In this document: positions 4,172 through 37,212 of the stretch, in pieces
Numbering within the stretch: position 1 is the stretch's first letter
How the letters are laid out: each line of letters begins with the position of its first letter
Origin: Aliamphritea spongicola
GTDB taxonomy: Bacteria > Pseudomonadota > Gammaproteobacteria > Pseudomonadales > Balneatricaceae
Length of the DNA stretch: 64,000 bases
Assembly: GCA_024347235.1 (NCBI GenBank)
Contig: AP025283.1
Coordinates: 2,666,001-2,730,000, forward strand
Reading direction: 5' to 3'
Position numbers and translations under genes: made by a program
The notes under the pieces: model-generated
Told to the model about the DNA's origin: nothing
What the model saw: only the letters and a program-made list of their open reading frames with translations
Databases searched by the model: none

Positions 4172-4188
4172 AAGATTACAGGGTGAAT

Positions 4189-5573: not shown

Positions 5574-5806
5574 TTGATTTCGCTTATAACTAGACAGTTC
5601 GAATTGAGCTGAACATTATAAAGAAAATTACCCGCCATGCACCCGATTCGCAGTATTTCTTTGCACTCAGATCAATTACTTGCATAACTCCTTAAACATA
5701 TTCTTCTCCCGGTACAGAAGCTGAAAGAAGTTCAATTGCAAAACATTCTCAATTACAAATATAATCCCGGTTTTCGCATATCCCGCTCAGTCAGCAGGTA
5801 AGTAAC

Positions 5807-5973: not shown

Positions 5974-6005
5974 TCAGTTTTTAATTCTGTATCAAGGACA
6001 TAACC

Positions 6006-6539: not shown

Positions 6540-6570
6540 CCCCTTTCCCTTCAGTAGGGATAACATAACC

Positions 6571-6600
6571 AAAAAGCCTGTGATTATCACAGGCTTTTTA
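6571..6600. terminator. Bidirectional terminator between ftnA and the thioesterase gene
   Basis: AAAAAGCCTGTGA pairs with TCACAGGCTTTTT around a short loop. A runs and T runs on both sides let it serve ftnA on the plus strand and the convergent thioesterase gene on the minus strand. Confidence 0.9.
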
Positions 6601-6615
6601 TTCAGGATCCAAAGC

Positions 6616-7081: not shown

Positions 7082-7161
7082 AGTGACTTCCGAATATTAG
7101 TAATTATCTGAGACAGATATATAACTATGCCACATCAGCAACTGTCTTGCTGAAGCAATCG

Positions 7162-7901: not shown

Positions 7902-7965
7902 AACGCACTCCTGACTCAAAACAACGTATTCAGCGCCGGCACGCTCAGCCAGCGTAACAGGCAAA

Positions 7966-7989
7966 AAACGGCTAAAAAGCCGTTTTTAG
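7966..7989 (-). terminator. Terminator of glnS
   Basis: AAAACGGCT pairs with AGCCGTTTT around a short AAA loop just after the glnS stop. It has A and T runs on either side. Confidence 0.85.
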
Positions 7990-8000
7990 CAAAGTCTAGA

Positions 8001-9684
8001 TTACTTCTTCACCCAGCTGTCTTTCAAGCCAATGGTCTTATTAAATGTCGGTGTGGTGACATCGTGGTCGTAACGGTCTGCTACAAAGTAGCCTTCACGC
8101 TCAAACTGAAAAACAGTTTCCGGTTGCGCATTAATCAGATCAGGCTCAGCCCAGCAGTTGTCCAGTTCTACATAAGAATCAGGATTAATGTCCGCGAGGA
8201 AGTCATCATCGTTTGGTTTTTCAACACTGAACAGACGATCGTAAACGCGCACTTTAACCTGCTTGCCATGTGTCGCAGATACCCAGTGCATCACTCCCCG
8301 TGGCTTCATTTCAGCCGGCGGGTTTTCACCAACGGTACCCGGCACCAGAGTCGCTTTGATTTCAGTCACTTCACCACTATCATCTTTAATCACTTCTTCC
8401 GCTTTAATGACATAGGCACTGCGCAGGCGCATAAAGTCACCCGGCACCAGCTTCTTGAACTTCTTACGGGACAGGGTGCTGTCTTCGTTAAAGTCATTCC
8501 GGTCAATATAAATTTCCCGGGTGAATGGCAGGCTGCGGCTGCCCATTTCTTTGCGGGTGCGCCGGTGCGGTCATCATTTCCACTTCACCTTCCGGGAAGT
8601 TAGTAATAGTCACCTTCAGCGGATTCAGTACGCACATTGCACGGGCAGAGTTTTCATTCAGGTCTTCACGGACGAAGAACTCAAACTGCGCCATATCCAC
8701 TACACCGTCGGTCTTAGCCACCGCCAGGCTGTCACAGAAGTTACGCACGGCCTGCGCTGAATAACCACGGCGACGCATACCGGAAATGGTTGGCATCCGC
8801 GGATCATTCCAGCCACTTACCACACCTTCGTCCACCAGCTGCTTCAGCTTACGCTTACTGGTAACCGTGTAGTTAATGTTCAGACGGCCAAACTCGTACT
8901 GACGTGGCTTGCTTGGTACTGGCAGGTTTTCAATAAACCACTCATACAGTGGGCGGTGATCCGCAAATTCCAGCGTACAGATAGAATGCGTTACCCCTTC
9001 AATGGCATCTTCCTGACCATGGGCAAAGTCATAGTTCGGGTAGATGCACCATTTGTCACCGGTCTGGTGATGAGACTGTTTGCGAATACGGTACAGAATC
9101 GGATCACGCATGTTCATGTTTGAAGACGTCATGTCAATTTTGGCACGCAATACCCGGCTGCCTTCCTCAAACTCACCCTGCTTCATTCGCTCCAGCAGAT
9201 CCAGACTTTCCTCAGCACTGCGCTCACGGAACGGGCTGTTTTTACCAGGCTTAGTTGCCCAGCCACGGTACTCACTGGCCTCTTCCGGAGACAAATCACA
9301 AACATAAGCATTGCCGTTACGGATCAGGTGCTGCGCCCAGGCATAAAACTGATCAAAATAGTCAGACGCATAACGTACTTCACCGGCCCATTTAAAGCCT
9401 AACCACTGCACATCTTCTTTAATGGCATCCACGTATTCCTGATCTTCCTTAGAAGGGTTCGTATCGTCGAAACGCAGATTACACTCGCCGTTATATTTTT
9501 CAGCCGTACCGAAATTCAGGCAGATAGACTTGGCATGACCAATATGCAGATAACCGTTTGGCTCAGGCGGGAAACGCGTAACAACCTTGCCACCGTTCCG
9601 ACCCTCCTGGATATCCTGCTCAATGATCTGATGGATAAAGTTAGTCGGCGGTGTATTTGTTGTCGAAGCGTCGTTATTACTCAT
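8001..9684 (-). CDS. glnS: Glutamine--tRNA ligase
   Basis: Charges tRNA-Gln. The class I catalytic core shows [18 protein letters not shown] (HIGH motif) near residue 40, the DDTNP motif, and the [11 protein letters not shown] segment where VTSKRKL replaces KMSKS. The anticodon-binding barrels follow in the C-terminal half ([11 protein letters not shown] at the end). About 560 residues. The frame changes once near 8545, within the segment reading [23 protein letters not shown] after correction. Its neighbours ppiB and lpxH are divergent, an arrangement common in Pseudomonas-type genomes. Confidence 0.95.
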
Positions 9685-9876
9685 AGTACGTCTTTGATTC
9701 CGTTATTGTATTCACCTGACTGCAGCCAGGCTCAAAAGTGAGCAGCATTATAAATCAGCCTCAGAGCAACTGCTACATCACTCAGCATTCAGCTGCATTA
9801 ATTTTCACCTGACGCAGCCCATTGCCTGACGTATAATCCCTGCTTTGTTTTATTAGGTTTAAAGGTAATTAAAACC

Positions 9877-10403
9877 ATGATCGTTCTGCAGACTAACTTC
9901 GGGGACATTTCCTGGAACTGAACCATGAGAAAGCACCAAAGACAGCCGCTAACTTTGAAAAATACGTCAAAGAAGGCTTCTACGACGGCGTCATCTTCCA
10001 CCGTGTCATTGATGGCTTCATGATTCAGGGCGGCGGCTTTGAACCGGGCATGGTCAGCAAAGAAACCGCTGACAGCATCGAAAACGAAGCAGACAACGGT
10101 CTGAGCAACAAGAAATACACCGTTGCTATGGCCCGTACGATGGATCCGCACAGTGCTTCTGCTCAGTTCTTTATCAACGTCAGCGACAACACCTTCCTGG
10201 ATCACACCGCCAAAACAATGGAAGGCTGGGGTTACGCAGTTTTTGCTGAAGTTGTAGACGGTTTTGACGCAGTAGACAAGATCAAAGCAGTGACCACCAC
10301 TTTCCGTGCCGGCCATCAGGATGTTCCGACTGAAGACGTGATCATCAAGTCTGCATCCATTGCCGACCTCCCGGACCTGGAAGAGATCGACGTCGACGAA
10401 TAA
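9877..10403 (+). CDS. ppiB: Peptidyl-prolyl cis-trans isomerase B (cyclophilin)
   Basis: A cytoplasmic cyclophilin that speeds proline isomerisation during folding. The start at 9877 (AAAGGTAATT upstream) gives [11 protein letters not shown]. One missing C near 9913 then restores [16 protein letters not shown]. The catalytic region is clear: [31 protein letters not shown], and [10 protein letters not shown] for the hydrophobic pocket. About 175 residues, slightly longer than the E. coli enzyme because of the acidic C-terminus DLEEIDVDE. The lpxH start follows one base after its stop, so the two form an operon. Confidence 0.93.
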
Positions 10404-10404
10404 C

Positions 10405-11123
10405 ATGCGCTGCCTGTTTATTTCCGACCTGCATCTGCAGGCCTCACGCCCGGATCTTACCCGGGCGTTGCTGACCTTTCTGAACAATGAAGCCAGCCAG
10501 TGCCAGCAACTTTATATCCTTGGCGATCTTTTCGAAGCCTGGATCGGTGACGATGCAATTCCTCCGGATATGCAACCTGTCATAACAGCCCTGCGTAATT
10601 TACATGACCAGGGAACCCAGCTGTTTTTCAGCACGGTAACCGTGATTTTCTGGTTCAGCAGACCTTTGCCGAACTGACCGGCTGCACCCTGTTACCGGAA
10701 GCCATAACCGTTAACCTACCCGCAGGACGCGCTCTGCTCATGCATGGCGACCAGCTGTGCACGGATGACTATGAATATATGGAATTCCGCAAACTGCTGC
10801 GTAATCCTCAATGGCAAAATGACTTTTGAGCAAAAGCATTGCAGAACGCTTAGAAGTCGCCCGTCAGTTGCGCGCAGCAAGCCAGAGCAAAATGCCGAAA
10901 AATCCATGACCATCATGGATGTTAATCCACAGGCTGTGACACAGGCAATGACTGATGCAGACGTAAGCCTGCTCATTCATGGTCACACTCACCGCCCGGC
11001 TGTTCACGAAGACACTCAGGATTTGCGACGCATTGTTCTGGGAGACTGGGATACTCAGGGCTGGTATCTGGAATGCACAGAAGCAGGTGAATCCTCATCA
11101 GCTTCCCCATTACAGATACCTGA
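10405..11123 (+). CDS. lpxH: UDP-2,3-diacylglucosamine diphosphatase
   Basis: Cleaves UDP-2,3-diacylglucosamine to lipid X in lipid A synthesis; a manganese calcineurin-like phosphoesterase at the inner membrane. The motifs are FISDLHL, ILGDLFEAWIGDD, a GNRDFL segment (restored), LMHGDQLCTDDYEYM and LIHGHTHRP. This gene has the densest errors here: frame changes near 10635, 10828 (T run), 10893 (A run) and 11095. The last correction gives the end LISFPITDT with a stop at 11123, neatly before the terminator; uncorrected, the reading would run through the hairpin. About 240 residues, as expected. Confidence 0.9.
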
Positions 11124-11127
11124 GCAT

Positions 11128-11152
11128 AAAAACCGGCATATAGCCGGTTTTT
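11128..11152. terminator. Bidirectional terminator between lpxH and miaE
   Basis: AAAAACCGGC pairs with GCCGGTTTTT around a five-base loop. It is flanked by convergent genes and serves both. Confidence 0.9.
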
Positions 11153-11170
11153 ATCATGACTGACGAAGCT

Positions 11171-11779
11171 TCACGCTGCCGAAGGGACACCGCTGTGGAA
11201 ACGGAACTCGGTATCCGGAGACTCAATCAGATTACGTTCGACTTCACGGAACATTGCCACCCGCTCACTGATATCCTCACCCGCTGCATCTTCAGCCAGC
11301 TTCAGATAATCCTGATAATGACGCCCTTCAGACTTAAGTAAAGAACGATAGAATTTTGCCAGCTCATCATCCAGATAAGGCGCCAGCTTGGCAAAACGCT
11401 CACAGGAACGCGCTTCAATGAATGCGCCGATAATAGAAATATCAATTAACCGGCCTGGTTCACTGGTCCGCACATGTTCACGCAAGCCACCGGCATAACG
11501 GGCTGAACTCAGATGGCAGTACTGGATACCCCGGTCTTCCATTAGCGCCAGCACCTGCTCAAAGTGAATCAGCTCTTCACGTGCCAGACGGGACATTTTA
11601 TTCAGCAAATCACTGTTATCGACGTAACGGAACATCAGCGTCATCGCGGTGGATGCCGCTTTCTTTTCACAGTGCGCATGATCGATCAGTAACAGATCCT
11701 GCTGCTCAAGCGCAGCCTGAATCCAGCTATCAGGGGTTTCACAGGCAAGAAATTCTTTAATCTCGTCCAGAGCAGACAT
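11171..11779 (-). CDS. miaE: tRNA-(ms[2]io[6]A)-hydroxylase
   Basis: Hydroxylates the isopentenyl group of 2-methylthio-N6-isopentenyladenosine-37 in tRNA. It is an intact diiron ferritin-like protein of about 200 residues. Candidate iron-ligand segments are HAHCEKKAAST, REELIHFEQV, EARSCERF and EGRHYQDYLKLA. The ATG at 11779 (MSALDEIKEFL) matches the family N-terminus; an upstream in-frame TTG at 11791 would add four residues. It is convergent with lpxH. The substrate depends on miaA and miaB, which are not in this window. Confidence 0.88.
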   Translation of the reverse strand: MSALDEIKEFLACETPDSWIQAALEQQDLLLIDHAHCEKKAASTAMTLMFRYVDNSDLLNKMSRLAREELIHFEQVLALMEDRGIQYCHLSSARYAGGLREHVRTSEPGRLIDISIIGAFIEARSCERFAKLAPYLDDELAKFYRSLLKSEGRHYQDYLKLAEDAAGEDISERVAMFREVERNLIESPDTEFRFHSGVPSAA

Positions 11780-23962: not shown

Positions 23963-24186
23963 CTGCAGTTCTCCTGCTTATCTGTTACACAGCCTGCAAG
24001 GCAGGCTCAAACAATGATTTCTGTATAATTCACATGCAACCTGCACGTGTATTACACAATAATCTTATATCTATTTGTAAAGCCGAACATACTACCAGAT
24101 AGATCCGCCAAGCACAGCCCCAAGAGACGTTTCAGAGAGGAAAAGAAACGCCATGCTCCCGCAGGCCGGATCAGCGTACTGACCAC

Positions 24187-25028
24187 CTAACAGGATATAA
24201 AATACGGCCCCAGATCAGACGCCGGCAATTCGTATTCTGCCGGATACTTAACATCCACAAAGTACAGACCAAATGGCGGTGCAGTAACACCGCCCAAACG
24301 GCGATCCCGCGCTTCCAGCACTTCTTTAGCCCACACAGGCTCAGCCTCACCCGCCCCGATCGTCATCAGTACACCGGCGAAGTTACGGATCATATGATGC
24401 AAAAACGCATTAGCCCGCACATCCAGAACAATCAGATCTCCTTCACGGTAAACATTGAACTCCCGAACCTCCCGCACAGGACTTTTTGCCTGACAGCCTA
24501 CCGCCCTGTATGAAGTAAAGTCATGCTTACCAATCAGGTACTGAACCGCTTCACGCATCGCCTCAATATCAAGATCTTTATACGTCCAGGTAACCCCTTT
24601 ATTAAGTACAGCGGGCTTCACCTTCGCACTGTATATCAGGTACCGGTAACGGCGCTCCAACGCTGAAAAACGGGCATGGAAAGTCGTATCAACAGGCTTC
24701 GCCCATTTAATGGCTATATCATCAGGAGCTTAGTATTCGTCCCCATTACCCAGCCGCGGACATCGCGCTTTGCATAAGTATCAAAATGGATAATCTGATA
24801 GGTACCACTGACCCCGGCATCAGTCCTGCCGGCACAGACAACACTGACGGGCTCATTGGCAATCTTACTCAGCGCAGCTTCAACTTCAGCCTGGATGGTC
24901 GGGACGTTATGTTCCGGCTGGATCTGCCAGCCCCGGTAATTTCCACCGGCATACTCAACACATAACGCAAAACGATAAGGGGCGACTAACGTCGCCCCTT
25001 CTGAATGGGTATTATCCCTTTGTGACAT
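24187..25028 (-). CDS. truA: tRNA pseudouridine(38-40) synthase
   Basis: Makes pseudouridine at positions 38-40 of tRNA. FALCVEYAGGNYRGWQIQP opens the fold, and the catalytic Asp lies in CAGRTDAGVSG. The frame changes once near 24725, where one missing base gives TKLPDDIAIKWAKPVD, exactly the family pattern. FLHHMIRNFAGVLMTIG follows near the C-terminus. About 280 residues. It lies 39 bases downstream of fimV, an order kept in Pseudomonas. Confidence 0.94.
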
Positions 25029-25067
25029 ATCTTTTACTTAATATCCTGAATGCTTAAAACCCTGTCT

Positions 25068-27835
25068 TCAGACAAGTGATTCCAGCAGAGAGTTAGCTTC
25101 CTGCTTTTGATTATCACTGCCTTCCTGCAGAATTTCAGCCAAAATATCTTTTGCACCGTCGACATCTTCCATATCGATGTAGGCACGTGCCAAATCAAGC
25201 TTAGTCTCAACTTCATCAGCACCGTCCAGCAAGCTGATTCCATCAAGGCCTTCATCACCGGAAGCCGGTGAAGCACTATCATCACCACTGAGCAGCGCTT
25301 CCAGCTCAGAATCAAGATCAGCATCCAGATCCTGAGAGAAAGTTGCTTCCAGATCATCTGCAGCAGAGCCGCCGGCAAAAGCTTTCTCATCGAGCACTAC
25401 TTCATCGTTGTCAGCAACCGCTTCTTCAAGCAGGCTTTCAACTTCAGGGTGAACAGCTACATGCTCAGGCACCGGTGAAGCAGCCTCAGCTTCAGACTCC
25501 GTTGATTCACCCAGCAGCTCATCCAGCGAAACCATATCGCTGTCTTCACCATCATCTTCCGGCAGCTCATCAGCCGACTGAAGATCAGCCATCAGATCGT
25601 CGATATCAACAGATTCATCTTGCGCTGCAACCGGCTCTTCCGGTGGCGCATCATTCAGCAGTGAATCAAGATCAACCAGATCTTCATCTTCTTCAGCCGC
25701 TGATAAATCAAATTCAAGATCATCTGCGTCATCCACTGCTGCTTCAGCAACGGCTTCCGGCTCATCATCAGGCAAAGCCTGCGGATTAAACTCCAGATCA
25801 TCGCCATCAGTTTCTGCCAGTACATCATCCAGATCTGCTATTTCTTCTTCAGCTTCTTCAGCGATTGGCTCTGCAGTGAACTCAAGCTCATCATCATCGA
25901 TCTCAGCCAGAACATCATCGATTGACGCGTCATTACCTTCATCAAGGATGGCATCAAGGGCATCGTCAACCTCCGGCTCTGCCAGCTCATCAGCCAGATC
26001 ATCAGCCTCAGGCTGCTCTGCTGCGGCAGTAAATGGCTCATCGATATCCATGTCCAGATCAAGGTCAAACTCATCTTCCGCTGAGTCAGTTGCCGCCGCT
26101 ACAGCAGCAGGCTCGACAGCCTCTTCCACATCTGCAATGTCCAGCTCAGCCAGATCCGCATCCAAGTCATCATCGCCCAGCCCCAGATCGAACTCCTGAT
26201 CATCAATGGTTTCGTCTAAAGGATCAGCTTCGGACTCTTCAAGTGGATTTTCTGCAAAGCTGTCATCAAGATCCATTTCCAGATCCAGCTCAGTCAGATC
26301 TTCAAGATCATCCAGATCCACATCTTCGGCTACAGCGGCCAGCTCTTCAGTTTCTTCCGGCGCCTCAGCATCCGTATCTGCGTCAGTGTCTGCAGCTACA
26401 GCTTCTTCAGCGACATCATCAAGCTCACCGATATCTGCTTCAGCATTAGCCACTGCCTGTTCCAGCTCACCGCCTTCTTCCTCTTCTTTATTCTTACGAC
26501 GACGCAGGAAGAAAATCAGACCAGCAATCAGCGCCAGTAAGCCGGCGCCACCGGCAGCAATATAAAGACCAAAATCTTTCAGCACCTTCATGATAGTCGG
26601 CACCAGACCGCTTTCAGCAGCTTGCTGGGCGGCAAGTTCAGCATCTAACTGCTGTTTCTTTGCCGCATCAAGCTCGGCCTGAAGCGCAGCAAGTTGCTGA
26701 TCCTTAAGCTCAAGTAAACGCTGTAAACTTTCCATCTGCTGAGCCAGTGCATCAACCCGGCCAGATAATTCCTGATTCTCACGCTGAATCTGATCGACAG
26801 TTTCAAGCGCAGCAGATAAATCTGTTTCTAACTGGGTATTCTTGGCTACCAGCTCAGAATCCTCAGCTTTTGCCATTTCACCACTCTGTCCATCAGCCAT
26901 CGCAGCCGAATCACTCTCAGTGGCAGATGCAACTATTTTAAGCTGGCCTGACTCAGCAACAGGATCTGCAGGAGCCGCCGTTTTTACACTGACATCACCT
27001 TTATCAGAGCTATCCAGCTGTTGCTTTTTGCTGATTTACCCGTGCTCTGCTTCCACACTGCAGTCTGCCGCCAGAACTCTTCTTTCGCCTGTTTAGCCGT
27101 GAGTTTCTGAGCTTCTTCCTGTGTCGGCATTTTAAGCACCACACCGGCTTTCAGCTGATTAACATTACCGTTGGTAAATGCATCCGGGTTTTACGCTGAA
27201 TCGCCAGCATCATCTGCGCTTCAGAAATGCTGTCAGATGGTCGGTTCTGCTGTGCTATATGCCAAAGGGTATCGTTTACATCGACATATACTTCAGATTT
27301 GCCGTCCGCACGGGTCTGAATATTGGAAACAGGCTTTGAAGGTGCTGCAGGCTGGGATTGTGGCTGGGAAAGCGGTGCTGCTGCCATTGCCTCTGAGCGG
27401 ATTTTAGGCGGCTGCGCTGCAACCGTTGCCGGTGTCGGATCATAAACCGGCGGATCGAGCAGAACTGTATATTCACGAACCAGACGTCCGCTAGGCCAGT
27501 TCACCTCAACCAGAAAATTCAGAAACGGTTCTTTTACCGGTACAGCAGAAGAAAGATAAATAACGCCGTTACCGTCAGGACGGATCTGCACATTAAACTG
27601 TACATCCGTCAGAAAACGCAGTTTCTCGATACCCGCTAATGCGAACTCGTCAATACCAGCCATTCTTGGCTGTACTTGCTGGGGTTTAACTGCCGCGCCT
27701 GGAGAAGTTGTATCTCAGCCCTTAACGGCTCGTTCAACGCCGACTTAATTTGATTTCACCCAGTCCCAGTGCCCGGGCTGTGGTGCTACTCATTGCTCCG
27801 GCAATTGCCAGGCTAAGAGCCAATTTACGCAGCAT
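25068..27835 (-). CDS. fimV: FimV/HubP-like polar hub protein
   Basis: A large inner-membrane protein that organises cell poles and type IV pilus or flagellar functions in relatives. After correction the order is a signal peptide (MLRKLALSLAIAGAM), a periplasmic FimV N-terminal domain (LGEIKLSSALNEPLRAEIQ), a LysM peptidoglycan-binding domain (DTLWHIAQQN to VLKMPT) and a coiled coil. One membrane span (FGLYIAAGGAGLLALIAGLIFFL) and basic stop-transfer RRRKN come next. A very acidic cytoplasmic stretch with repeated DLD/DDLE motifs ends in a C-terminal TPR-like FimV domain (TKLDLARAYIDMEDVDGAKDIL). The frame changes near 27756, 27695, 27188 and 27033. About 920 residues. Confidence 0.9.
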
Positions 27836-28324
27836 ATTTTGCTTCCTTATATCCCCACTCAAAAATACCTGAGCGAAAACCTTATATATTCAGAAAGTTA
27901 CAAAGCGGACTATCACAGCAGAGTATTCATTAAAACCAGTGTTTAATCAACAACTCAGGACCAACTGACACCATAATGGTCAGTAAAATTGTTACATTTG
28001 TGCCATTTGGCCCCTAAATTATTGATTTGCTGCACATATCTTACGTCCAACAGAGGGATTCCGGGGCTTTTCCCCGCTAAAATCAACCTGACGGTTTCAG
28101 GCGAAAACCAACCGCGCCTGACCATAAACTACAAAATATTAATCTCCGCCAAACGAACGATTATTCATTTTTATTATTTAAGTTCACCGCCCTTCCACCA
28201 GCATAATCATGCAACCATCCGTCTGTATTATCGGCCCGTCACCAGTACCAGGTTGGCTCCGGTCACTAAAGCAATAAAAAAGCCGCTAAAGGCGGCTTTT
28301 CAGTGTTCACAAAGAAAAATAATT
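27836..28324. other. Intergenic region between fimV and tmpB
   Basis: A gap of almost 500 bases, AT-rich nearest fimV, that presumably holds the fimV promoter. Apart from the terminator at its tmpB end I see no gene, repeat or RNA fold in it. Confidence 0.5.
28276..28300 (-). terminator. Terminator of tmpB
   Basis: AAAAGCCGC pairs with GCGGCTTTT around a five-base loop, 25 bases beyond the tmpB stop. Confidence 0.88.
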
Positions 28325-28897
28325 TTACTGAAGACGTAACGCTTCCAGCATTGGGCGGTAGTACGACACTTTATGAATTGTCCGCCCTGCAACCTTACCG
28401 TCATCATCGTAATACCGCAGGCGCACAGCATCTTTATGGTGTGGATTAGCTTCAAATTCGGCAACTTCTTCTGCAGACATTTTACCGCCCTGCAGATTCA
28501 GTGAGTTAATTGACGCCGGTGACAAACGGTCATAATACGTTTCATCAACAGTACACAGATAACGCTTGGCAGCGACATGCAGACGAACCGGCTCACTGAC
28601 TTCCGGCGGATAAAACATTTCAAGAATCGCACCACCGGCATCTTCATGTAAGTTATCCGTTCCGTTCTCCAGTGCATCCAGCGGAAAATCACCTATGAAA
28701 TGCCCGATATCATGCAACAGTGCGGCAATCACCAGTGAATCCGGCGCACCATCTTCAACCGCACAGGCCGCTGACTGCTCCATATGATCAGCCATTGATA
28801 CAGGCTCACCCAGATAAGATTCAGGTCCGCGAATCGCAAACACTTCCAACAGATAATCGACAATATTGTCGCGGGTTACATCACTCTTATTAATCAT
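28325..28897 (-). CDS. tmpB: HD-domain diiron oxygenase, TmpB/PhnZ-like
   Basis: Predicted to cleave a 1-hydroxylated phosphonate oxidatively to phosphate and a carboxylate, using a mixed-valent diiron centre. It is an intact HD-domain protein of 190 residues. The PhnZ/TmpB hallmarks are present: Y28 and E31 of the YLGE motif, H38, the HD pair H62-D63 (LLHDIGHF), H84, and H107 with K111 in HVAAKRYL. Conventional HD phosphohydrolases lack the YxGE pattern. Pairing with a TmpA-like oxygenase and a phosphonate-type importer favours TmpB, whose product is glycine betaine, over PhnZ. ATG 28897 with GAGGA upstream is chosen. It lies 61 bases downstream of the AraC gene on the same strand. Confidence 0.82.
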   Translation of the reverse strand: MINKSDVTRDNIVDYLLEVFAIRGPESYLGEPVSMADHMEQSAACAVEDGAPDSLVIAALLHDIGHFIGDFPLDALENGTDNLHEDAGGAILEMFYPPEVSEPVRLHVAAKRYLCTVDETYYDRLSPASINSLNLQGGKMSAEEVAEFEANPHHKDAVRLRYYDDDGKVAGRTIHKVSYYRPMLEALRLQ

Positions 28898-28958
28898 TTT
28901 CCTCACCAGTAATAAAGTTGCCCGTCATATGGACACTCACTCAGTGTTCAGCCATTGC

Positions 28959-29748
28959 TCACTGGCTGCCTAAATCAAACTGTTTAATTTTCCGGTATTC
29001 ACGGGGCGACAATCCGGTATATTTTTGAAGATCCTCGAAAAATATAACGCATCCTCGTATCCGCAATGTCGCGCCACCGCCTCAATATTCTGGCCGCCAA
29101 ACAGGAGTAGTCTGGTGGCAGCTTCTACCCGCTTCTGGATTACATAACGCTTAGGAGACACCCCATAACATTATTAAACCAGCGGCTGAAATGCCCATCA
29201 CTGAACCCCAGCTGGGAAGCCAGATCAGTCATATCCAGATTGGTCAGATGCCGGTCAATATAACTGAGCACCTTCTGCATTCTCACTTCATCCTGACCGG
29301 ACTCTCCCCGGGTCGTGGACACATCCAGCAGAGGCGCCAATAACCTCAGCACAGCCCCCATTGCCAGCAGCGTACCGCCAGGCTTTTGCTCTGCCTCTAT
29401 AACATCCCTGAAAAGCTGCTCGTCTGTCACCGCAACCGGATTATCCGGTACACGGTACAAATCAAACACATCTACCCCGGGCGACATCTGCAAGGTAAAC
29501 GCACAGGCCCCGATTTCCATGGGTTCAGTGCAGTGATAATGACACTCACGGTTCAGAGGCACGACAACCATGCTGCCGGGCAACAGTTTTAGCCGCCGCC
29601 CTTCAAGCTCAACGTATCCCCGGCCACTGCGGGTATAAATCAGCCAGTTGTACGGACGCTGATAGCTCGGATATGCCCAGTCCAGATCCGCTTTCTGCCA
29701 GTATGAACGCACCAGAGACAAGCTTAAATTTGCATCAGTCAGTTGCAT
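28959..29748 (-). CDS. AraC-family regulator of the phosphonate cluster
   Basis: A transcription factor of about 263 residues with an N-terminal cupin-type ligand domain (WLIYTRSGRGYVELEGRR, LLPGSMVVVPL) and two C-terminal helix-turn-helix units. The HTHs read LASQLGFSDGHFSRWFNN and IEAVARHCGYEDALYFSRIFKK. The frame changes near 29160 (giving MGVSPKRYVIQKR) and near 29026 (giving KKYTGLSPREYRKIKQ), with a stop at 28959. It sits between tmpB and the divergent tmpA, so it probably activates both when the phosphonate or betaine is present. ATG 29748 is preferred to a TTG five codons earlier. Confidence 0.85.
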
Positions 29749-29930
29749 AGACCAAACCGTCAAACGTCATTAAAACTTCACATCTATATCAAAAGTCCAT
29801 ATTTATATCCATAAAATCCATATGAATAATCATAAAACCGACATACCATAACAATCATAATTCAACACCGTCAAGCAACGGTCTGAATCTATTTGCCAGC
29901 CCGTCGGATAAACTTTCAAGAGACTCTGTT
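29749..29930. promoter_or_regulatory. Divergent control region of the phosphonate cluster
   Basis: This AT-rich gap separates the araC-tmpB and tmpA-transporter arms. The hexamer TCCATA occurs three times in the same orientation, at 29796, 29808 and 29817, as expected of direct-repeat sites for an AraC protein. Promoter boxes are not clear enough to assign. Confidence 0.45.
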
Positions 29931-31002
29931 ATGCAAGACATACTTACTTATAAAAATCAGCGCTTTCACAGTCTGTGGCTACGGGATAACTGCCAGTGCC
30001 CTGAATGCCGCCATGAAAACGGCCAGCGTCTTCATGAAACCTGGCAACTGCCTGCGGATGTTAAAATTGCAGAAAGCCGTGAAACCGACACTGGCCTGTG
30101 GGTCCGGTTTGCTGAACCACATGCCCACGAATCAGAATTTATCGACGCTTACCTGACTGAGCACGCTTATGACCAGCCTGCTGCGAAACCTGAAACAACC
30201 TCTCTCTGGGAAGCGATCTGGAGCTGGACAGCATCAGTTTCGAATACGCGGACGTCATCAGCGATGACCGCACCAAGCTGGCCTGGCTGGATGCGCTTAT
30301 CAGCCACGGCATCACCAAGCTCAGCGGGGTACCCGCACAGGCAGGAATAATCCTTAAAGCTGTCGATCTGTTTGGCTTTGTTCGCCAGACCAACTACGGC
30401 ACTCTGTTTGAAGTTAAAACTGAAGAGAAGCCTCAGAACCTGGCATATACGCCTATGCCACTCAGCCTGCATACGGACAACCCCTACCGCGACCCGGTGC
30501 CAACTCTGCAATTACTGCACTGTCTTGTTCAGGCTCAGGAAGGCGGTGTCACCGCACTGACAGACGGCTTTGAAGCGGCACGGATTTTACGGGAGGAGTA
30601 CCCGGAGAAGTTCGCACTTCTGAATGAGCAGATCGTCCGTTTCCGCTTTGCCAGTGAAGATGCAGAACTTGAGCATCAGGACACAATGATCACCACCAAC
30701 ACCCGTGGCGAAATCATTAAAGTGCGGATCAATAACCGCTCATCAGCCCCCTTCCAGGTGGACTTCGATATCATGCCGGCCTTTTATGATGCCTATCAGA
30801 CCTTCATGCGCATCGTACAGGAGACCGTTGCAAACGGACCCTGAAACTTCAGTCCGGTGACCTGATCCTGTTTAACAATGAACGCGTTCTCCACGGCCGT
30901 GAAGTACAGGCCATCGGCGCCCGCCACCTGCAAGGCTGTTATGCTGATATCGACAGCCTGCGCAGTACCGCAGCCGTGCTGCGCAATAAACTGAACGGCT
31001 AA
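29931..31002 (+). CDS. tmpA: Fe(II)/2-oxoglutarate oxygenase, TmpA-like
   Basis: Predicted to hydroxylate 2-(trimethylammonio)ethylphosphonate at C1 with O2 and 2-oxoglutarate. The N-terminal zinc (DUF971) domain reads LWLRDNCQCPECRHENGQR, shared with gamma-butyrobetaine and trimethyllysine hydroxylases. The TauD-like catalytic domain has iron ligands in PLSLHTDNPY (HxD) and RVLHGRE (distal His). The frame changes near 30213 and 30839; the second correction restores LKLQSGDLILFNNERVLHGRE and the stop at 31002. About 357 residues. Sequence alone cannot exclude gamma-butyrobetaine hydroxylase, the usual automatic label, but the adjoining TmpB-like gene and importer favour TmpA. PhnY* lacks the zinc domain. 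Confidence 0.8.
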
Positions 31003-31120
31003 AAGACTGCAGCTAATGCAACCTCAGCACCAACCCGGCACAGAGGTTGCTATATCGCGGCATTTTTCATAAAAACCGCTATAACTCTCGAGCTTACCCC
31101 GCAGATATGTAAGAATGCGC

Positions 31121-31148
31121 GCCGCTGAATCCGTACTGATTCAGCGGC
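31121..31148 (+). terminator. Strong hairpin between tmpA and the binding-protein gene
   Basis: An 11-bp perfect stem, GCCGCTGAATC with GATTCAGCGGC and a six-base loop, is followed by a weak T-rich stretch. It could attenuate transcription into, or protect the 5' end of, the transporter message. Confidence 0.6.
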
Positions 31149-31177
31149 CTGTTATTCTGTTCATCAATGAGCTCACA

Positions 31178-32052
31178 ATGAAACTGAAACACACTCTGAT
31201 TGCCTGTCTGGCCGCGTTATCCGGCAGCCTGGTGCATGCCGCACCCACTTTAGTTTTTCTGCTATTCCGGACCAGGACGAAACCCGTCTTAAGGAACGTT
31301 TTGCCAGAGTATCCGAGTATCTGGAAATCCAGCTTAAGACAGACGTCCGCTTTGTACCGGTTAAATCATATGCTGCTGCCATCACAGCATTTCGCAATAA
31401 TCAGGTACAGCTGGCCTGGTTCGGCGGCCTTTCCGGCGTTAAAGCACGTCAGCTGGTACCCGGCGCTCAGGCAATTGCTCAGGGCATTGAAGACCCTAAC
31501 TTCAAATCTTACTTCATCGCCCATAACAGCACCGGCCTGACCGAAAATGCCAATCCTGAGGCAACTACCCTGCCAGCAGAAATTCAGGGCAAGACATTCA
31601 CTTTTGGCTCCAAAGGATCAACTTCAGGCCGACTGATGCCGGAATTTTTCCTGCGCAAACAGTTTGACCAGTCCCCTGATGATATTTTCAGCCGGGTAGG
31701 ATTCAGCGGTAACCATTCACGTACAATTGCCCTGGTTGAGTCCGGTGCTTATCAGGTAGGTGCAGTTAACTATAAAGTATGGGACAGCAACGTAGCCGCC
31801 GGATCCGTTGACACCACAAAGGTAAATATCATCGGAAAAACACCGGGATATCCGGATTACCAGTGGACAGTACGTGGCGATCTCGACAGCCAGTTCGGTG
31901 AAGGTTTCACTGAAAAGCTAAAGCAGGCACTGCTCAGTATGAAAGACCCGGAACTGCTTAACAGCTTCCCGCGCAAAGGCTTTATTCCTGCGACCAACGA
32001 AGACTTCCAGCCAATACTTGAAGTTGGCAAACAGGTAGGGCTGATTGACTGA
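31178..32052 (+). CDS. PhnD-type ABC transporter binding protein
   Basis: A periplasmic binding protein of the phosphate/phosphonate-binding-like family. The signal peptide MKLKHTLIACLAALSGSLVHA is clear. One missing T near 31256 restores VFSAIPDQDETRLKERF. Oxyanion-site segments are PVKSYAAAITAFRNNQVQLA, TFGSKGSTSGRLMPEFF and GFSGNHSRTI. About 291 residues. It closely resembles the group databases call putative selenate-binding (TIGR04553), a label based on context elsewhere. Here the neighbours are phosphonate-degrading enzymes, so a phosphonate ligand such as TMAEP is the better inference. Its stop overlaps the ATPase start. Confidence 0.82.
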
Positions 32053-32708
32053 TGCCAGCCCTGGCCCTTGAAAACCTCAGCGTTCATTACGGCAAACAGC
32101 AGGTCATCGGACCGGTTACCCTGCATCTGAATACTGATCAGCTGACTGTTTTCATTGGCAAGAGCGGCGGTGGTAAATCATCGCTGCTCAACCATATCTA
32201 TGACCGCCTGTCTTCTAACCGGAGCATTGCGCTTATCCCACAGGATCTCGGGCTGGTCGACACCCTTTCAGCGTATCAGAACGTCTATATGGGCCAACTG
32301 TACAGGCATTCAACCCTGTATAACCTGACGAACCTGATCCGCCCCAGACAAACTGATATTGCCGCCGTCCACGAACAGCTGAAACAACTGGATCTGGCAG
32401 ATAAATGCTGGCAACCGGTTGGCGAACTTTCCGGTGGACAACAACAGCGCATCGCCATTGCCCGTGCACTTTACCAGCAGGCTGACCTGTTGATTGCAGA
32501 CGAACCCTGCTCTGCACTTGACGGCCCCAGGGCCAACCAGGCAATGCAGCTGCTACGCCAACAATATCCGGGAGCCATCATTGCCCTACACGATCTGGAT
32601 GTGGCGCTGAAGTATGCAGACCGCATCATCGGCATCGCAGACGGCCAGATAGCCCTTGATCAGCCCACCGCCCGCCTGACACACCAAAGCCTGCTGGATT
32701 TTTACTGA
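32052..32708 (+). CDS. PhnC-type ABC transporter ATPase
   Basis: The ATP-binding subunit of the importer, intact at 218 residues. Walker A is GKSGGGKSS, the signature is LSGGQQQRIAIARAL, Walker B is LLIADEP, and the switch His is in ALHDLDVAL. The stretch LGLVDTLSAYQNVYMGQL followed by STLYNLTNLIRP is characteristic of PhnC-like phosphonate ATPases. Its start overlaps the stop of the binding-protein gene (TGATG), and the permease follows within ten bases, so all three are translated together. Confidence 0.88.
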   Translation: MPALALENLSVHYGKQQVIGPVTLHLNTDQLTVFIGKSGGGKSSLLNHIYDRLSSNRSIALIPQDLGLVDTLSAYQNVYMGQLYRHSTLYNLTNLIRPRQTDIAAVHEQLKQLDLADKCWQPVGELSGGQQQRIAIARALYQQADLLIADEPCSALDGPRANQAMQLLRQQYPGAIIALHDLDVALKYADRIIGIADGQIALDQPTARLTHQSLLDFY

Positions 32709-32717
32709 TACCGGCAT

Positions 32718-34246
32718 GAACACCAGCCAGCAACCGGGCTTACTCAGCCACGCTCCCCGCCTGCGAATCAGTATCTGGTTTTTACTGATTGCCACCGGCT
32801 GCCTGTTTCTTGCAGACATATCCATCACCAGCATCAACCCGATGCTGGAAATGCAGCGTTTTTCAGTGCCTGGTTACAACCGGATCTGAATATCATTGGC
32901 ACCGCAGCAGGGGCACTGGTCATCACCATTGCATTTGCGCTCATAGGCGTGGCACTGGCGGCAATCTGCGGCCTGTTTATAGCAACTCAGTTTCAGCGCC
33001 GCTGGCTACGGACGCTCTGTGCAGCGCTACGCTCCGTTCACGAGTTATTCTGGGCACTCATATTTCTGCAATGTTTCGGTCTCCATCCGCTTACCGGCCT
33101 GCTGGCTATCGCACTGCCTTACAGCGGTGTTTTCGCCAAAGTATATGCAGAGATTCTGGAAGAAACCTCTGCCAGCCCTGAACGGGTTATAGCTGGCAAT
33201 AACAGCCGCCTCACCAATCTCTGTTACAGCCGGATTGCCCAGGCCTGGCCACACCTTGCAAGCTATACCCGCTACCGGTTTGAATGCGGCATCCGCTCCA
33301 GTGCAATCCTTGGTTTTATTGGCTTACCCACCCTTGGCTACTATCTGGAAGCCTCTTTCAGCCAGGGATACTATTCTGAAGTGGCCAGCCTGCTGCTGCT
33401 ATTTTTGCGCTCATCGCCAGCATCAGATTCTGGTGCCACAAACGTCTGCTACCGCTGTGGCTGCTGACCAGCCCCTGGCTGATCATCTCTGACCATTTCA
33501 ACCCGGCAGGACAGACCAGTATTCAGTGGCAAAACATTGAGCGCTTTTTTACTTCAGACATCATACCGGCCCCGTTACGAAACGCCGACACCTGGTGGGA
33601 AGCGGAAACACTGGCGGTATTTCTGCAATGGTTTGAAAATATCTTCAGCCAGCAGATACTGCCCGGTATCTGGAATACGCTGATACTGACTCAGATCGCA
33701 CTGGTCGTGACCGGCATCATCGCCTTACTGCTTTTCCCACTAGCATCAAAACTCTTTGTGAATACCATCGGCCGCAGCGGCGGTAAACTGCTGCTGATCG
33801 TTGCCCGTTCAACACCGGAATATCTGCTCGCCTATATACTGCTGCAATTGTGGGGCCCTTCCATGCTGCCGGCCATTGCCGCGCTGGCACTGCACAACGG
33901 GGCACTGATCGCTCACCTGCTGGCCAAACGCAGTGAACATCTTCCGTTGCGTAAAGATGCTGCCACCGGGCTTGCCCGCTACGGATACGAAGTGCTGCCG
34001 CGAATTTATAACCCGTTTATGGCCATTCTGTTTTACCGCTGGGAAGTCATCATGCGCGAAACTGCCATACTCGGCATCCTGGGTATCCACACCCTGGGAT
34101 TCTTTGCAGACAGCGCCATACAGGAGATTCGCTTTGATGTTGCCATGCTACTGATCATCAGTGCGGCAATGCTGAACATTCTTGCGGACCATGTCGCCGG
34201 AATGCTGCGTAAGAAGCTTAAATTACAACAGATGAGCAGTTGCTGA
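32718..34246 (+). CDS. Double-domain PhnE-like permease
   Basis: The membrane subunit of the importer. Unlike ordinary PhnE (one domain, about 270 residues), this gene encodes two binding-protein-dependent permease domains in one chain of about 510 residues. Domain 1 has the EAA-type loop at FAKVYAEILEET and LGFIGLPTLGYYLEAS. Domain 2 has IVARSTPEYLLAYILLQLWG and LGILGIHTLGFFAD. The frame changes near 32759 (one extra or two missing), 32862 (missing T) and 33402 (missing T). The last lies where the two halves might be mistaken for separate genes, but the reading continues straight through (FFALIASIRFW). Confidence 0.8.
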
Positions 34247-34247
34247 T

Positions 34248-35046
34248 TTATTCCGTCACAGCAACGGGCAGTAAACGGCTGGTGAAACTGTCTGTAATTT
34301 CCAGAACCGTGCCTTCACGCCACATATCCTGCAGATTCTTGTTCACCGCCTCAATCAACAACTTTTGGTTAAGCGGAGACTTTTTGGAAAAATCATATAA
34401 GCGGGACGGGGCTCATGCAAGGATTGCCTAACGGCACTATTTCGTTACTCATTCCCAGCTCATACAAGGCATACAGGCCTACATGCCGCTCATTTACATA
34501 AGCATCCACACGGCCACTCATAAGCATCTGGAAACCACTGGCAATAGAGTTCGTTTCGTAGGAGGTAAACAGACCACTTTGCCTGGCCTGATCGAACTGC
34601 GGATTAATACTGAACCCAGCAGGTACACTGACCCGCTTACCGGCCAAATCCTCAACAGACTCCAGAGAAAATCCCTCCCCTTTACGCACAAACACACTGA
34701 AAGCCGTCAGGTGAAGCGGCGCTTTAGGATACGTAGCAAACTCCTCACGGTCAGCCGTTTTATAGGCAGTCAGCAAAACATCCGCTGATCCGTTTTTAAT
34801 ATAATGGAGGGCACGCTTCCATGGAACACACTCGATCTCATACGCCATTTCAAGCCGGTCAAACAGCTCGGCAATCAACTCGATATCGATACCTTCCGCC
34901 TGATCCTGCTCGCACCAGATGAACGGCTTAAAATCTGTCAGGGCAATAACCCTGAGCGGAGACTTTTCGCTGGCAGATACAGCGACAGATATAAAAGATA
35001 AAACAATACCAACCCATAACAACAAACATCTTGCTGTCTTAGTCAT
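34248..35046 (-). CDS. Periplasmic solute-binding protein, SBP_bac_3-like
   Basis: A secreted protein of the amino-acid-binding superfamily, about 265 residues, that converges with the phosphonate permease gene. The signal peptide ends near SVAVSASEKSPLRV. IALTDFKPFIWCEQDQAEGIDIELI and VPWKRALHYIKNGSAD are typical, as is RVSVPAGFSINPQFDQA. The frame changes near 34413, and correction gives NPLHEPRPAYMIFSKKSPLNQKL and a stop at 34248. No permease is adjacent. Together with the protein at 1038-1835 it is one of two orphan binding proteins of this type in the window. Confidence 0.75.
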
Positions 35047-35199
35047 ACTGTTATTTTCCTGCGGTCAGCCAGTGAGAAAGGATACTGCAGAGCAATCAAG
35101 CAGCACATCAATATCACTTAAAACTAGCGGCTGACGGGGAATGGGTCAACTGAAATGTTGCCGGCATGCGGTACAGCAAACCGACAACAATAAACAACC

Positions 35200-37212
35200 T
35201 CAGATACGGAACTGGCTTACCTGCGCCTGCAGCGCCGGGCAGACGCCTCCATCTGCTGACTGGCATCAGAACTGGCATGGGCCTGCTCTGCCGCCTGACG
35301 GGAACGCAACTGCAACGACTGACTGCTCTGGCTGATCTGCTCAGACGCACAGCTTTGTTCTTCTGTGGCACTGGCAACATCAAGCATCCGCTCACGTACC
35401 CGCTGGGTCGCCGCCTGAATCTGACCAAGCAGCACTTCAGCAATGCCGGCTTTCTCAACACTCTCCGACACCCGGGACTCACCGGCCCGCATACGCTCAG
35501 AAGCCTGCTTGGCGTTCAGCTGTAACTTGGCAACCACCTGCTGGATTTCCTTGGTTGAATCCTGAACCCGCTGCGCCAGCGTACGTACTTCATCTGCCAC
35601 CACGGCAAAACCACGGCCCTGCTCACCGGCACGGGCAGCTTCGATCGCCGCATTCAGCGCTAACAAATTGGTTTGCTCAGCGACGGCATTGATCACTTCA
35701 ACCACATTACCGATATCAGCACTGTCCTGTTCAAGCTTACCAATTGAGCCCACTACCTCAGCAAACTCTGCATTCAGCAGGTTAATCGATTGCTCAACCC
35801 CGGCAACCGCCTGCTGCCCTTCTGTTGCTAACTGAGAGGTTGTATCTGCCTCTGCAGAAACTGAGCTGACGTTTTCTGCTACATGATGAATTGAATCAGC
35901 AACCTGAGTAATTGCTGCCGACACCTGTACAATCTCTTCACTGCTGGCCTGAGCAGCTTCCTGAAGCTGATCGCTGCCAGCATAAATTTCACCGGATACA
36001 TGGGCTACGTCATCACCGGATGCCCGAACTTTGGCAATTACATCAGAAAAGCCACCAGCATAGCGCTTACCCGCAGCTGCAGACGCACCAGCTCATTTTC
36101 ACTCTGTGCGTCCGGCGCCCGCTTAAAGCCGGCGGTAAGATCTCCCTGTCCCACCAGTGTCAGCACCCGGCCAACCTCTTTAAGCGGTGCCAGTGCGCGG
36201 CGCAAAAATACTGACAGCAAGACCACCATCACCACTACAGCAATGCATGCCATCGCCATAAGCAGCCAAAGCAAAGGCTCTACCTGACGGGTATATTCAT
36301 CTTTATAACTGACCGCAAATACCGTCCACGGACTGTTGCCTGCCTGACGGTAACTGACCCGTACACCACCCTCATGATTTTCATCGCTGTACTCGAATGC
36401 ACCACTGGCATTATCCAGCACATCTTTGTAAGCGGTATTCGTATAAACGGATATCAGTGACTCCCCTGATTGCGCTGATCGGCAATCAGTTTACCCGCCA
36501 GTTTGTTTTCACCGTTATAAACAAGCCCCGCATGGCCTGAGTCACCAAACCGGGTCATTAACAAGTTGTTACGCAATTGCTTAAGCAAATCAGATGTCGG
36601 GAAGCCCACATACAGAATCGCAACCACTTCACCGTTCGCCATCACCGGCGTGTATTTGGTCATGTAATCAGTGCCAAACAGACGGGCTTCACCCAGGTAA
36701 ACTTCACCGCGCATTAACTGCTGATAACCGGGATGCCCCTTACCCAGCAGCGTACCGATTGCGCGTTTGCCCTGCAGATTCTTCAGTGATGTGGTGACCC
36801 GCAGGAAATCATCCTGGTAACGGATAAAGACTGTCGCATTACCGCCGGTCATCCGGGCAAACCGGTCGACCTGAGAAAATTCAGATTCACCACTTCTCCG
36901 TTGTGGGTGACCTGCGGGCTGGCATAATCACCGATCTGAACTGTTTTATCCCGATCAAAACCAATGCGTCGGGATACAGCCCTTTAAACGTGGTGGCCAG
37001 GCGTTCGGTATTATCAATGATGGTGCCATACGCTGTATCCAGCTGCGACGCCAGCACCTCAACCTGCCGATCCTGCGACTGCTCCGCCTGACTGATCAGC
37101 ACAGTACGGGTTTCGTAACCCACCACACCAATCAAAATGGCCATGATTACACCCACCAGCACAAAAACCCCCAGGCTCAGTTGCCTGGTAAGGGCCAACG
37201 ATTAATTGCCAT
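35200..37212 (-). CDS. Methyl-accepting chemotaxis protein with single Cache sensor
   Basis: A transmembrane chemoreceptor. After correction the first span is [20 protein letters not shown]. The periplasmic Cache_3-Cache_2-type domain contains [31 protein letters not shown] and [17 protein letters not shown]. The second span is [20 protein letters not shown], then a HAMP domain and the signalling tip [19 protein letters not shown]. The frame changes near 37195, 36893, 36462, 36052 and 35243; the last restores the end [10 protein letters not shown] and the stop at 35200. About 665 residues. A Fur-like sequence lies about 100 bases upstream of the start. Confidence 0.88.

What the first reader, a model, noticed from the sequence alone, without database searches (positions are those of the whole stretch)
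28325..34246. Candidate 2-(trimethylammonio)ethylphosphonate (TMAEP) use cluster with its own importer and regulator
Seen: an HD-domain protein with the YLGE (Y28, E31), H38, HD (62-63), H84, H107/K111 pattern of mixed-valent diiron oxygenases; a DUF971 plus TauD-domain Fe/2OG oxygenase; an AraC regulator; and a complete PhnD/C/E-type importer in two divergent arms. Known: TmpA and TmpB convert TMAEP to glycine betaine and phosphate, and both are commonly misannotated (TmpA as gamma-butyrobetaine hydroxylase). Inference: this is a full uptake-and-cleavage unit that yields phosphorus and an osmolyte in a marine bacterium.
Basis: partly seen in the sequence, partly recalled or inferred. Interest (0 to 1): 0.85.

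Follow-up and report, generated by a model that had tools for sequence, protein, structure and literature searches.

The report
Phosphonate cleavage genes beside selenium importer
A marine bacterium carries a divergent version of the known two-enzyme route that cuts phosphorus out of a choline-like phosphonate, but the importer next to it does not look built for that molecule and more likely brings in a selenium compound.

Summary
The enzymes are where stated. 28325-28897 is a TmpB-type HD oxygenase with all metal and YxxE residues. 29931-31002 is a TmpA-type Fe/2OG oxygenase, broken in this error-rich assembly, intact in relatives, keeping the three residues that hold the phosphonate in TmpA. 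An AraC gene lies between; this divergent unit occurs in 13 genomes seen here. The pair falls outside butyrobetaine hydroxylase and PhnZ but is a sister clade of the assayed pair, below curated cut-offs, so TMAEP as substrate is inferred. The importer claim fails: its binding protein is of the TIGR04553/PhnD1 family, keeps the capping tyrosine reported to bar aminoethylphosphonate, and adjoins tmpA in only 4 of 13 genomes. Over three samples, 60 of 61 genomes with this family over cut-off have selD, and it lies beside selD, selU or selenoneine genes in diverse families. Best reading: a selenium oxyanion (selenite-like) importer that happens to adjoin tmpA. A better TMAEP importer candidate, Opp-type and found beside tmpAB in three other loci, lies about 1.85 Mb away in the same genome. 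The link to PhnD1 is the most interesting outcome.

The parts
28325..28897 (-). tmpB-like gene: HD-domain mixed-valent diiron oxygenase (intact)
   Evidence: NCBIfam TmpB 232.5 bits (cut-off 300), Phn-HD 187.6, PhnZ1 151.5; PDB TmpB 6npa 2e-54, PhnZ 4mlm 2e-22; tree
28962..29763 (-). AraC-family regulator gene, broken in the window, intact in relatives (269 aa in L034)
   Evidence: between tmpA and tmpB in 13 genomes
29764..29930 (.). shared upstream region between araC-tmpB and tmpA
   Evidence: geometry only
29931..31002 (+). tmpA-like gene: Fe/2OG oxygenase in three reading-frame pieces; intact in G001, G002, G012
   Evidence: each piece scores best with NCBIfam TmpA; intact L034 copy 396.6 bits, cut-off 400; PDB TmpA 6npb 2e-82, butyrobetaine dioxygenase 1e-46; residues
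31018..31050 (+). hairpin after the tmpA stop, possibly a terminator; hairpins of unlike sequence at the same place in G012, G001, G002
   Evidence: z -2.5 window, -2.6, -1.7, -4.4; T-run some way off, so weak
31121..31148 (+). 11-pair hairpin before the binding-protein gene
   Evidence: 12 terminator-like sites found, 6.7 expected
31178..32052 (+). periplasmic binding protein of the TIGR04553/PhnD1 family (frame-broken near its start)
32052..32708 (+). PhnC-like ABC ATPase (intact)
32716..34246 (+). fused PhnE-PhnE permease (broken in the window, 509-510 aa in relatives)

Best explanation
Two neighbouring but functionally separate units. Unit 1, tmpA <- -> araC-tmpB, is a divergent branch of the TmpA/TmpB pathway: TmpA hydroxylates C1 of 2-(trimethylammonio)ethylphosphonate (or a very close N-methylated analogue) with Fe(II), O2 and 2-oxoglutarate; TmpB, a mixed-valent diiron oxygenase, then cuts the C-P bond to phosphate and glycine betaine; AraC probably controls both arms. 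Shown here: family, active-site residues, tree position, conserved gene order. Inferred: substrate, products, regulation. Unit 2, binding protein-ATPase-permease, is a TIGR04553/PhnD1-type importer of a small pyramidal oxyanion, most likely a selenium oxyanion such as selenite, serving SelD-dependent selenium use; it came to lie next to tmpA in one small clade. Shown: pocket residues, co-occurrence with selD, physical linkage to selD, selU, senA and senB in other genomes. Inferred: ligand. TMAEP uptake is more likely done by an Opp-type ABC importer about 1.85 Mb away (binding protein at G000 838950-840536), near genes for a PF01663 phosphodiesterase, a HAD hydrolase, a LysR regulator and a Na/Pi cotransporter with a PhoU domain.
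For: Enzymes: best models and structures are TmpA and TmpB; N187, N287, R288 of TmpA kept in the window pieces; R288 in 31 of 31 TmpA-type rows; the N-R-S triple in none of 4 own-genome paralogues nor in human BBOX; trees; a separate HD/PhyH oxygenase pair with a PhnS2-type importer in the same genome. Module: 13 genomes. Importer: 9 of 9 Pm_PhnD pocket positions kept; Prochlorococcus and Synechococcus PhnD1 score over the TIGR04553 cut-off. SelD in 28 of 28, 14 of 14 and 27 of 28 TIGR04553-positive genomes against 11 of 29, 78 of 356 and 81 of 281 of the rest (Fisher p 1e-7, 2e-9, 9e-13). SelU in 27 of 28 against 12 of 29. Selenium genes in 14 of 38 fetched stretches with the protein over cut-off, five of them with SelD-fusion, SenB, SenA and importer together. 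Opp-type unit: beside tmpAB in L041, L047, L108; near-identical units in G000, G001, G002, G012.
Against: TmpB misses its equivalog cut-off by 67.5 bits and the intact TmpA by 3.4; the assayed Leisingera pair lies in another clade in both trees and differs in the TmpB stretch between HD and the next metal histidine. Exclusion of BBOX from the TmpA group has modest support, 88/69, and BBOX is a long branch. In the four genomes where the importer adjoins tmpA it is the only TIGR04553 copy over cut-off, so a real link there cannot be excluded. PhnD1 proteins bind phosphite and phosphate in vitro (PMC10284923, PMC5700983, PMC8786288 passages); I saw no selenite test. G542 has TIGR04553 without a SelD hit. 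Two selenium-linked members (L115, L129) have Asn at the D205 position. Selenium genes were not within the fetched stretch in 24 of 38. Co-occurrence tests ignore kinship. Opp-type copies at 40-44% identity in tmp-positive G004 and G017 sit in other settings, and tmp-positive G018 had no match at that threshold, so the Opp link rests on three cis cases and one clade.
Confidence: 0.66

Rival explanations
1. One reading: the adjacent transporter is the dedicated TMAEP importer, so the whole stretch is one uptake-and-cleavage unit.
For: Same strand and about 175 bases downstream of tmpA in the window, and next to it in four genomes; its models include PhnC and PhnE.
Against: PhnD1-type pocket with the capping Tyr, which PMC10284923 (passage) describes as the steric barrier to 2-AEP; 9 of 13 module genomes lack it there; 12 of 12 same-genus genomes without a TmpB hit of 200 bits have it; selenium linkage; hairpins after tmpA.
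Confidence: 0.06
2. The importer is a phosphate or phosphite transporter, as proposed for picocyanobacterial PhnD1, and its nearness to tmpAB reflects a shared phosphorus role.
For: PhnD1 binds phosphite (nM to low uM) and phosphate (uM) and the pocket is conserved.
Against: Tight co-occurrence and linkage with selD, selU, senA, senB, mostly in Gammaproteobacteria and in G624 of another class. Five weaker homologues (208-240 bits) in the class sample are in genomes without a SelD hit; the boundary is not clean, since the 201-bit protein of G044 does lie beside SelU.
Confidence: 0.22
3. The two oxygenases act on another cationic phosphonate (for example dimethyl-AEP, or a compound freed from an ester or lipid) rather than TMAEP.
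For: Equivalog cut-offs not met; sister clade to the assayed pair; a PF01663 phosphodiesterase or a HAD hydrolase accompanies relatives.
Against: The three phosphonate-holding residues and the aromatic positions aligned to the trimethylammonium end are kept; the genome has a separate AEP-type locus.
Confidence: 0.25
4. The Fe/2OG enzyme is a butyrobetaine or trimethyllysine hydroxylase of carnitine synthesis.
For: Same superfamily and Pfam domains.
Against: Lower scores for both models in every piece and for the intact copy (335.5 and 185.9 bits, cut-offs 414.75 and 268.3); Arg288 present; a TmpA gene or fragment lies beside TmpB in 21 of 22 named loci.
Confidence: 0.02

Closest known systems
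TmpA/TmpB pathway of Leisingera caerulea (PDB 6npb, 6npa)
   Same: Paired Fe/2OG and HD diiron oxygenases; metal ligands, YxxE loop, N187/N287/R288 of TmpA
   Different: Sister clade, below curated cut-offs; divergent arrangement around an AraC gene; different TmpB stretch between HD and the next histidine
PhnY/PhnZ (AEP oxidation; PhnZ PDB 4mlm)
   Same: HD oxygenase motif
   Different: PhnZ far more distant (2e-22 vs 2e-54); the genome has an HD gene beside a PhyH-domain gene elsewhere (L151)
Gamma-butyrobetaine dioxygenase (BBOX)
   Same: Domain make-up, aromatic positions at the trimethylammonium end
   Different: No Arg at the position of R288; lower model scores
Picocyanobacterial PhnD1-CE transporter (PDB 5lq5/5lq8, 7s6g)
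   Same: Binding protein in the same NCBIfam family, 9 of 9 tested pocket residues kept, PhnC and PhnE type partners
   Different: PhnE halves fused here (form in picocyanobacteria not checked); residue after the pocket His is Ser here and in most gammaproteobacterial members aligned, Asp in PhnD1
NCBIfam TIGR04553 'putative selenate ABC transporter' systems in selD/selU/sen clusters
   Same: Family membership over the cut-off (384 bits for the intact L034 copy)
   Different: Here next to tmpA, with selD and selU elsewhere in the genome

Membership tests
TmpB (NF049941) | score over curated cut-off 300 bits | tested here: not met
   232.5 bits
TmpB (NF049941) | YxxE plus H...HD...H...H...D | tested here: met
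   but all 48 rows, PhnZ included, share it
TmpB (NF049941) | groups with the assayed TmpB apart from PhnZ | tested here: met
   33-row group, support 96/90, as a sister clade within it
TmpB (NF049941) | oxidative cleavage of 1-hydroxy-TMAEP | not testable with these tools
   needs an assay
TmpA (NF049936) | score over curated cut-off 400 bits | tested here: not met
   intact L034 copy 396.6 bits; window copy is in pieces
TmpA (NF049936) | N187, N287, R288 contacts to the phosphonate | tested here: met
   residues named in PMC9296572 (passage)
TmpA (NF049936) | HxD...H iron ligands | tested here: met
Gamma-butyrobetaine dioxygenase (TIGR02409) | score over cut-off 414.75 bits | tested here: not met
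   335.5 bits for the intact L034 copy
PhnD phosphonate-binding protein (TIGR03431) | score over cut-off 261.1 bits | tested here: not met
   134.9 bits for the intact L034 copy
TIGR04553 / PhnD1 | score over cut-off 250 bits | tested here: met
   384.1 bits for L034; 377.3 for the window genome
TIGR04553 / PhnD1 | phosphite pocket I11, Y46, F90, S126, T127, S128, H158, D205, Y206 | tested here: met
   9 of 9 in the window piece
TIGR04553 / PhnD1 | transport of selenate or selenite | not testable with these tools
   genome context only

The most novel reading that the evidence does not exclude
The TIGR04553/PhnD1 family, including the much-studied picocyanobacterial PhnD1, is the missing dedicated selenium-oxyanion importer. 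Its pocket accepts a three-oxygen pyramid, so phosphite binding in vitro would be mimicry of selenite. That would explain why marine Synechococcus and Prochlorococcus keep a 'phosphite' transporter they cannot use for phosphorus while carrying SelD and YbbB.
Probability: 0.45. Interest if true: 0.78.

Novelty: new variant of a known kind. Interest (0 to 1): 0.56.

Why it matters
The enzyme pair extends the TmpA/TmpB route to a divergent, AraC-linked branch in marine Gammaproteobacteria (records titled Amphritea, Marinomonas, Oceanospirillaceae and Osedax symbionts) and gives a concrete candidate importer and accessory genes to test. Correcting the importer matters more: a review states that no high-affinity selenium transport system has been identified (PMC9312934, passage), and the physiological ligand of PhnD1 is unsettled (PMC10284923, passages). 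Both questions become testable with one binding assay on a protein family that already has crystal structures.

Tried and rejected
Rejected: importer as part of the TMAEP unit. Rejected: tmpA as a dying gene (10 of 12 compared genes are broken). Rejected: butyrobetaine hydroxylase and PhnZ identity. Rfam gave no match at gathering threshold over 24000-36000. The conserved block upstream of the binding-protein gene in the four tmp-linked genomes was looked for, by one short motif, upstream of 22 other copies and not found; no regulatory clue. I first took the Opp-type co-occurrence as strong (6 of 38 genomes at E 1e-100, those 6 being 6 of the 7 genomes in the sample with a TmpB hit of 200 bits; G018 is the seventh). 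Searches then showed that the 40-44% identical copies in G004 and G017 sit elsewhere, beside an HD/oxygenase pair and beside genes that look like histidine use (the latter recalled from the sequences), so I count only the four near-identical copies and the three cis cases. Tmp-positive G027, G032 and G033 were not in that 38-genome sample. Structure prediction was asked four times and was busy each time; no fold comparison was made. The Rajakovich 2019 paper and the 2022 selenoneine paper (DOI recalled) are not held and were not seen. Papers: only search listings and passages were seen for PMC10574752, PMC8177086, PMC9296572, PMC5700983, PMC10284923, PMC8786288, PMC5029168, PMC1273633, PMC5322559, PMC9312934. 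That a selenite role for PhnD1 is not in print rests on paper searches in the held library and on zero hits for 'selen' in three PhnD1 papers; the phrase 'putative selenate ABC transporter' occurs in one paper (listing only). The selenium idea itself is in the NCBIfam family name.
Full report
What was checked. The window lies in a 5.0 Mb single-contig genome (G000) of 78.5% completeness. Against the complete relative G001, 10 of 12 compared genes in and around the stretch are broken in the window. Broken frames are therefore a feature of the assembly. Intact copies of tmpA exist in G001, G002 and G012. L034 and G012 lie on contigs of equal length with identical genes and are treated as one genome; the same goes for L035 and G004.

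The two enzymes. The HD protein scores 232.5 bits with the TmpB model, 187.6 with the general phosphonate HD model and 151.5 with the PhnZ1 model. Solved structures rank TmpB (2e-54) far before PhnZ (2e-22). All three pieces of the oxygenase score best with the TmpA model; the intact relative scores 396.6 bits against a cut-off of 400, butyrobetaine dioxygenase 335.5 against 414.75. Its best solved structure is TmpA (2e-82), then butyrobetaine dioxygenase (1e-46). PMC9296572 (passage) names N187, N287 and R288 as the TmpA residues that bind the phosphonate. All three are present in the window. R288 is present in 31 of 31 TmpA-type rows (30 genes, one seen in two loci); N187 and N287 are Ser in two rows each. 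The N-R-S triple is absent from human BBOX and from four other homologues in the same genome; a fifth, weak TauD match was not in that alignment. In the TmpB tree the window protein lies in a 33-row group with the assayed TmpB (96/90), apart from PhnZ and from the genome's second HD oxygenase. The window tmpA is in pieces and was not put in a tree; the clade of its nearest relatives (12 rows, with G001, G002, G012, G004) is sister to a 19-row group (96/87) that holds the assayed TmpA and a third clade. BBOX, a long branch, is outside with modest support, 88/69. Both curated cut-offs are missed, so I do not file the pair as certified TmpA/TmpB; it works like them, probably on the same substrate.

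The module. Of 22 named loci found with the HD protein, 21 have a TmpA gene or fragment beside it and 9 have the divergent tmpA, araC-tmpB order; 11 have tmpB-tmpA on one strand and 10 of these 11 are followed by a HAD gene whose best model with a phosphonate name is PhnX-like, for the L041 copy 77 bits against a cut-off of 219. The importer of the window lies next to tmpA in 4 of these 13, namely G000, G001, G002 and G012; in the others it is not in the stretch held.

The importer is something else. The whole binding protein (L034) scores 384 bits with NCBIfam TIGR04553, 'putative selenate ABC transporter substrate-binding protein' (cut-off 250), but 135 with PhnD (cut-off 261). Its nearest solved structures are 7s6g and 5lq5 (1e-67 and 6e-58), which are picocyanobacterial PhnD1 according to PMC10284923 and PMC8786288; phosphite-binding PtxB follows at 1e-29 and E. 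coli PhnD is at 7e-9. The two PhnD1 sequences themselves pass the TIGR04553 cut-off, 338 and 297 bits. The phosphite pocket of Prochlorococcus PhnD (PMC5700983, passages) is kept at 9 of 9 positions in the window piece, capping tyrosine included. PMC10284923 (passage) describes that tyrosine as the steric barrier that keeps out 2-AEP; TMAEP is larger still. That the pocket cannot take TMAEP is structural reasoning, not a measurement.

Selenium linkage. Among 57 relatives TIGR04553 is over its cut-off in 28, SelD in 39; all 28 have SelD, against 11 of the other 29. In an even class sample of 370 the figures are 14 of 14 against 78 of 356, in a phylum sample of 309, 27 of 28 against 81 of 281, the exception being G542. 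The samples share members; together they hold 61 genomes with TIGR04553 over cut-off, 60 with SelD. Five weaker homologues (208-240 bits) in the class sample are in genomes without a SelD hit; on the other side, the 201-bit protein of G044, among the relatives, lies beside SelU in a genome with SelD, so the family boundary is not a clean divide. Fisher p values are 1e-7, 2e-9 and 9e-13, without correction for kinship. SelU is present in 27 of the 28 positive relatives against 12 of 29; the one positive without it, G013, is 75% complete. In 38 fetched stretches with an over-cut-off protein, 14 hold selenium genes (SelD, SelU, SenA or SenB), 24 do not; of 5 with a weaker homologue none does. Five show SelD-fusion, SenB, SenA and the importer together (L114, L129, L130, L131, L134). 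Ten neighbouring ORFs from six of these loci were scanned: eight are SenA or SenB over their curated cut-offs, two matched nothing. In the phylum sample the binding protein is next to SelD in G467, G579, G581 and G624 and within 3 kb in G538, G563 and G054. By comparison TmpB-type proteins of 200 bits or more are in 10 of the 57 relatives, 6 of them with TIGR04553, and in 5 of the 370 class genomes, only G000 with both. In the same genus, 12 of 12 genomes without such a TmpB have the importer, in another setting. The window genome has SelD and SelU elsewhere. After the tmpA stop all four linked genomes have a hairpin of different sequence at the same place, which suggests that tmpA transcription ends there; the T-run is some distance off, so this is weak.

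Link to PhnD1. PMC1273633 (passages) reports that Prochlorococcus marinus and Synechococcus have a SelD homologue with an NADH-dehydrogenase-like extension, and YbbB (SelU); it also calls the history of that SelD hard to sketch. PMC10284923 reports that Synechococcus PhnD1 binds phosphite best although the strains cannot use it, and that the system is not induced by phosphate shortage; its text has no 'selen'. PMC9312934 (passage) says that no high-affinity selenium transport system has been identified. A selenite importer would join these facts. I could not look at phnD1 neighbours in cyanobacteria; PMC10284923 reports tesA there, and no selenium gene is mentioned.

A better TMAEP importer. 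In L041 and L047 the tmp module is followed by a LysR gene, an Opp-type ABC importer and the HAD gene (with a phosphodiesterase gene starting at the end of L041); in L108 (G018) an Opp-type importer and a PF01663 phosphodiesterase lie beside tmpAB; L036, L038, L039 and L040 have the phosphodiesterase, and L040 also a PhnS2-type importer. L035, L037 and G027 (L106) show none of these in the stretch held. The window genome has LysR, Opp importer, Na/Pi cotransporter with PhoU domain (one 578-aa gene in G001), HAD and phosphodiesterase at about 832.8-843.4 kb, its binding protein 63% identical to that of L041; G001, G002 and G012 have the same set. In 38 relatives a match at E 1e-100 occurs in 6, which are 6 of the 7 with a TmpB hit of 200 bits, but in G004 and G017 it is a 40-44% identical copy in another setting. 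The Na/Pi-PhoU gene hints at phosphate release when the compound is used for carbon or nitrogen; that is inference.

Verdict. Enzymes: a divergent pair of the TmpA/TmpB kind, substrate probable but untested. Importer: not part of it, probably a selenium oxyanion importer.

Noticed in passing
L150 (G000:C1:832000-848000), 841-11369: LysR, Opp-type ABC importer, Na/Pi cotransporter with PhoU domain, HAD hydrolase and PF01663 phosphodiesterase in one stretch; candidate TMAEP or TMAEP-ester uptake locus.
   Followed up: partly
L151 (G000:C1:3550000-3566000), 1445-8170: Second phosphonate locus of the same genome: PhnZ-like HD oxygenase, PhyH-domain gene, a HAD gene that looks like PhnX (recalled), and a PhnS2-type binding protein.
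   Followed up: partly
L129, L130, L131, L134, L114: SelD-fusion, SenB, SenA (selenoneine genes) and a TIGR04553 importer together in five genomes of different families.
   Followed up: yes
G044:C4:27695-29567: A binding protein of only 201 bits with TIGR04553 lies beside SelU, so the selenium link may reach below the family cut-off.
   Followed up: no
L036, L038, L039, L040, L041 (end), L108: A PF01663 phosphodiesterase travels with tmpAB; weakly similar to bacterial NPP and to ENPP6. It could free TMAEP from an ester.
   Followed up: partly
L055, 7998-8537: TmpB-like gene in a Planctomycetales contig without a TmpA match in the stretch.
   Followed up: no
L054, 877-2484: GMC oxidoreductase gene directly after tmpB.
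   Followed up: no
L150, 11608-13227, and L161, 12088-14149: MbnB/TglH-type RiPP enzyme with a DUF2063 domain and, in L161, a small Cys-containing ORF, next to the Opp-type locus.
   Followed up: no
window 34251-35058 (-): Convergent broken gene weakly similar to amino-acid binding proteins, followed by what is a chemotaxis transducer gene in G001.
   Followed up: no
window 31121-31148: 11-pair hairpin some 30 bases before the binding-protein start codon, also pairable in G001 (read).
   Followed up: partly
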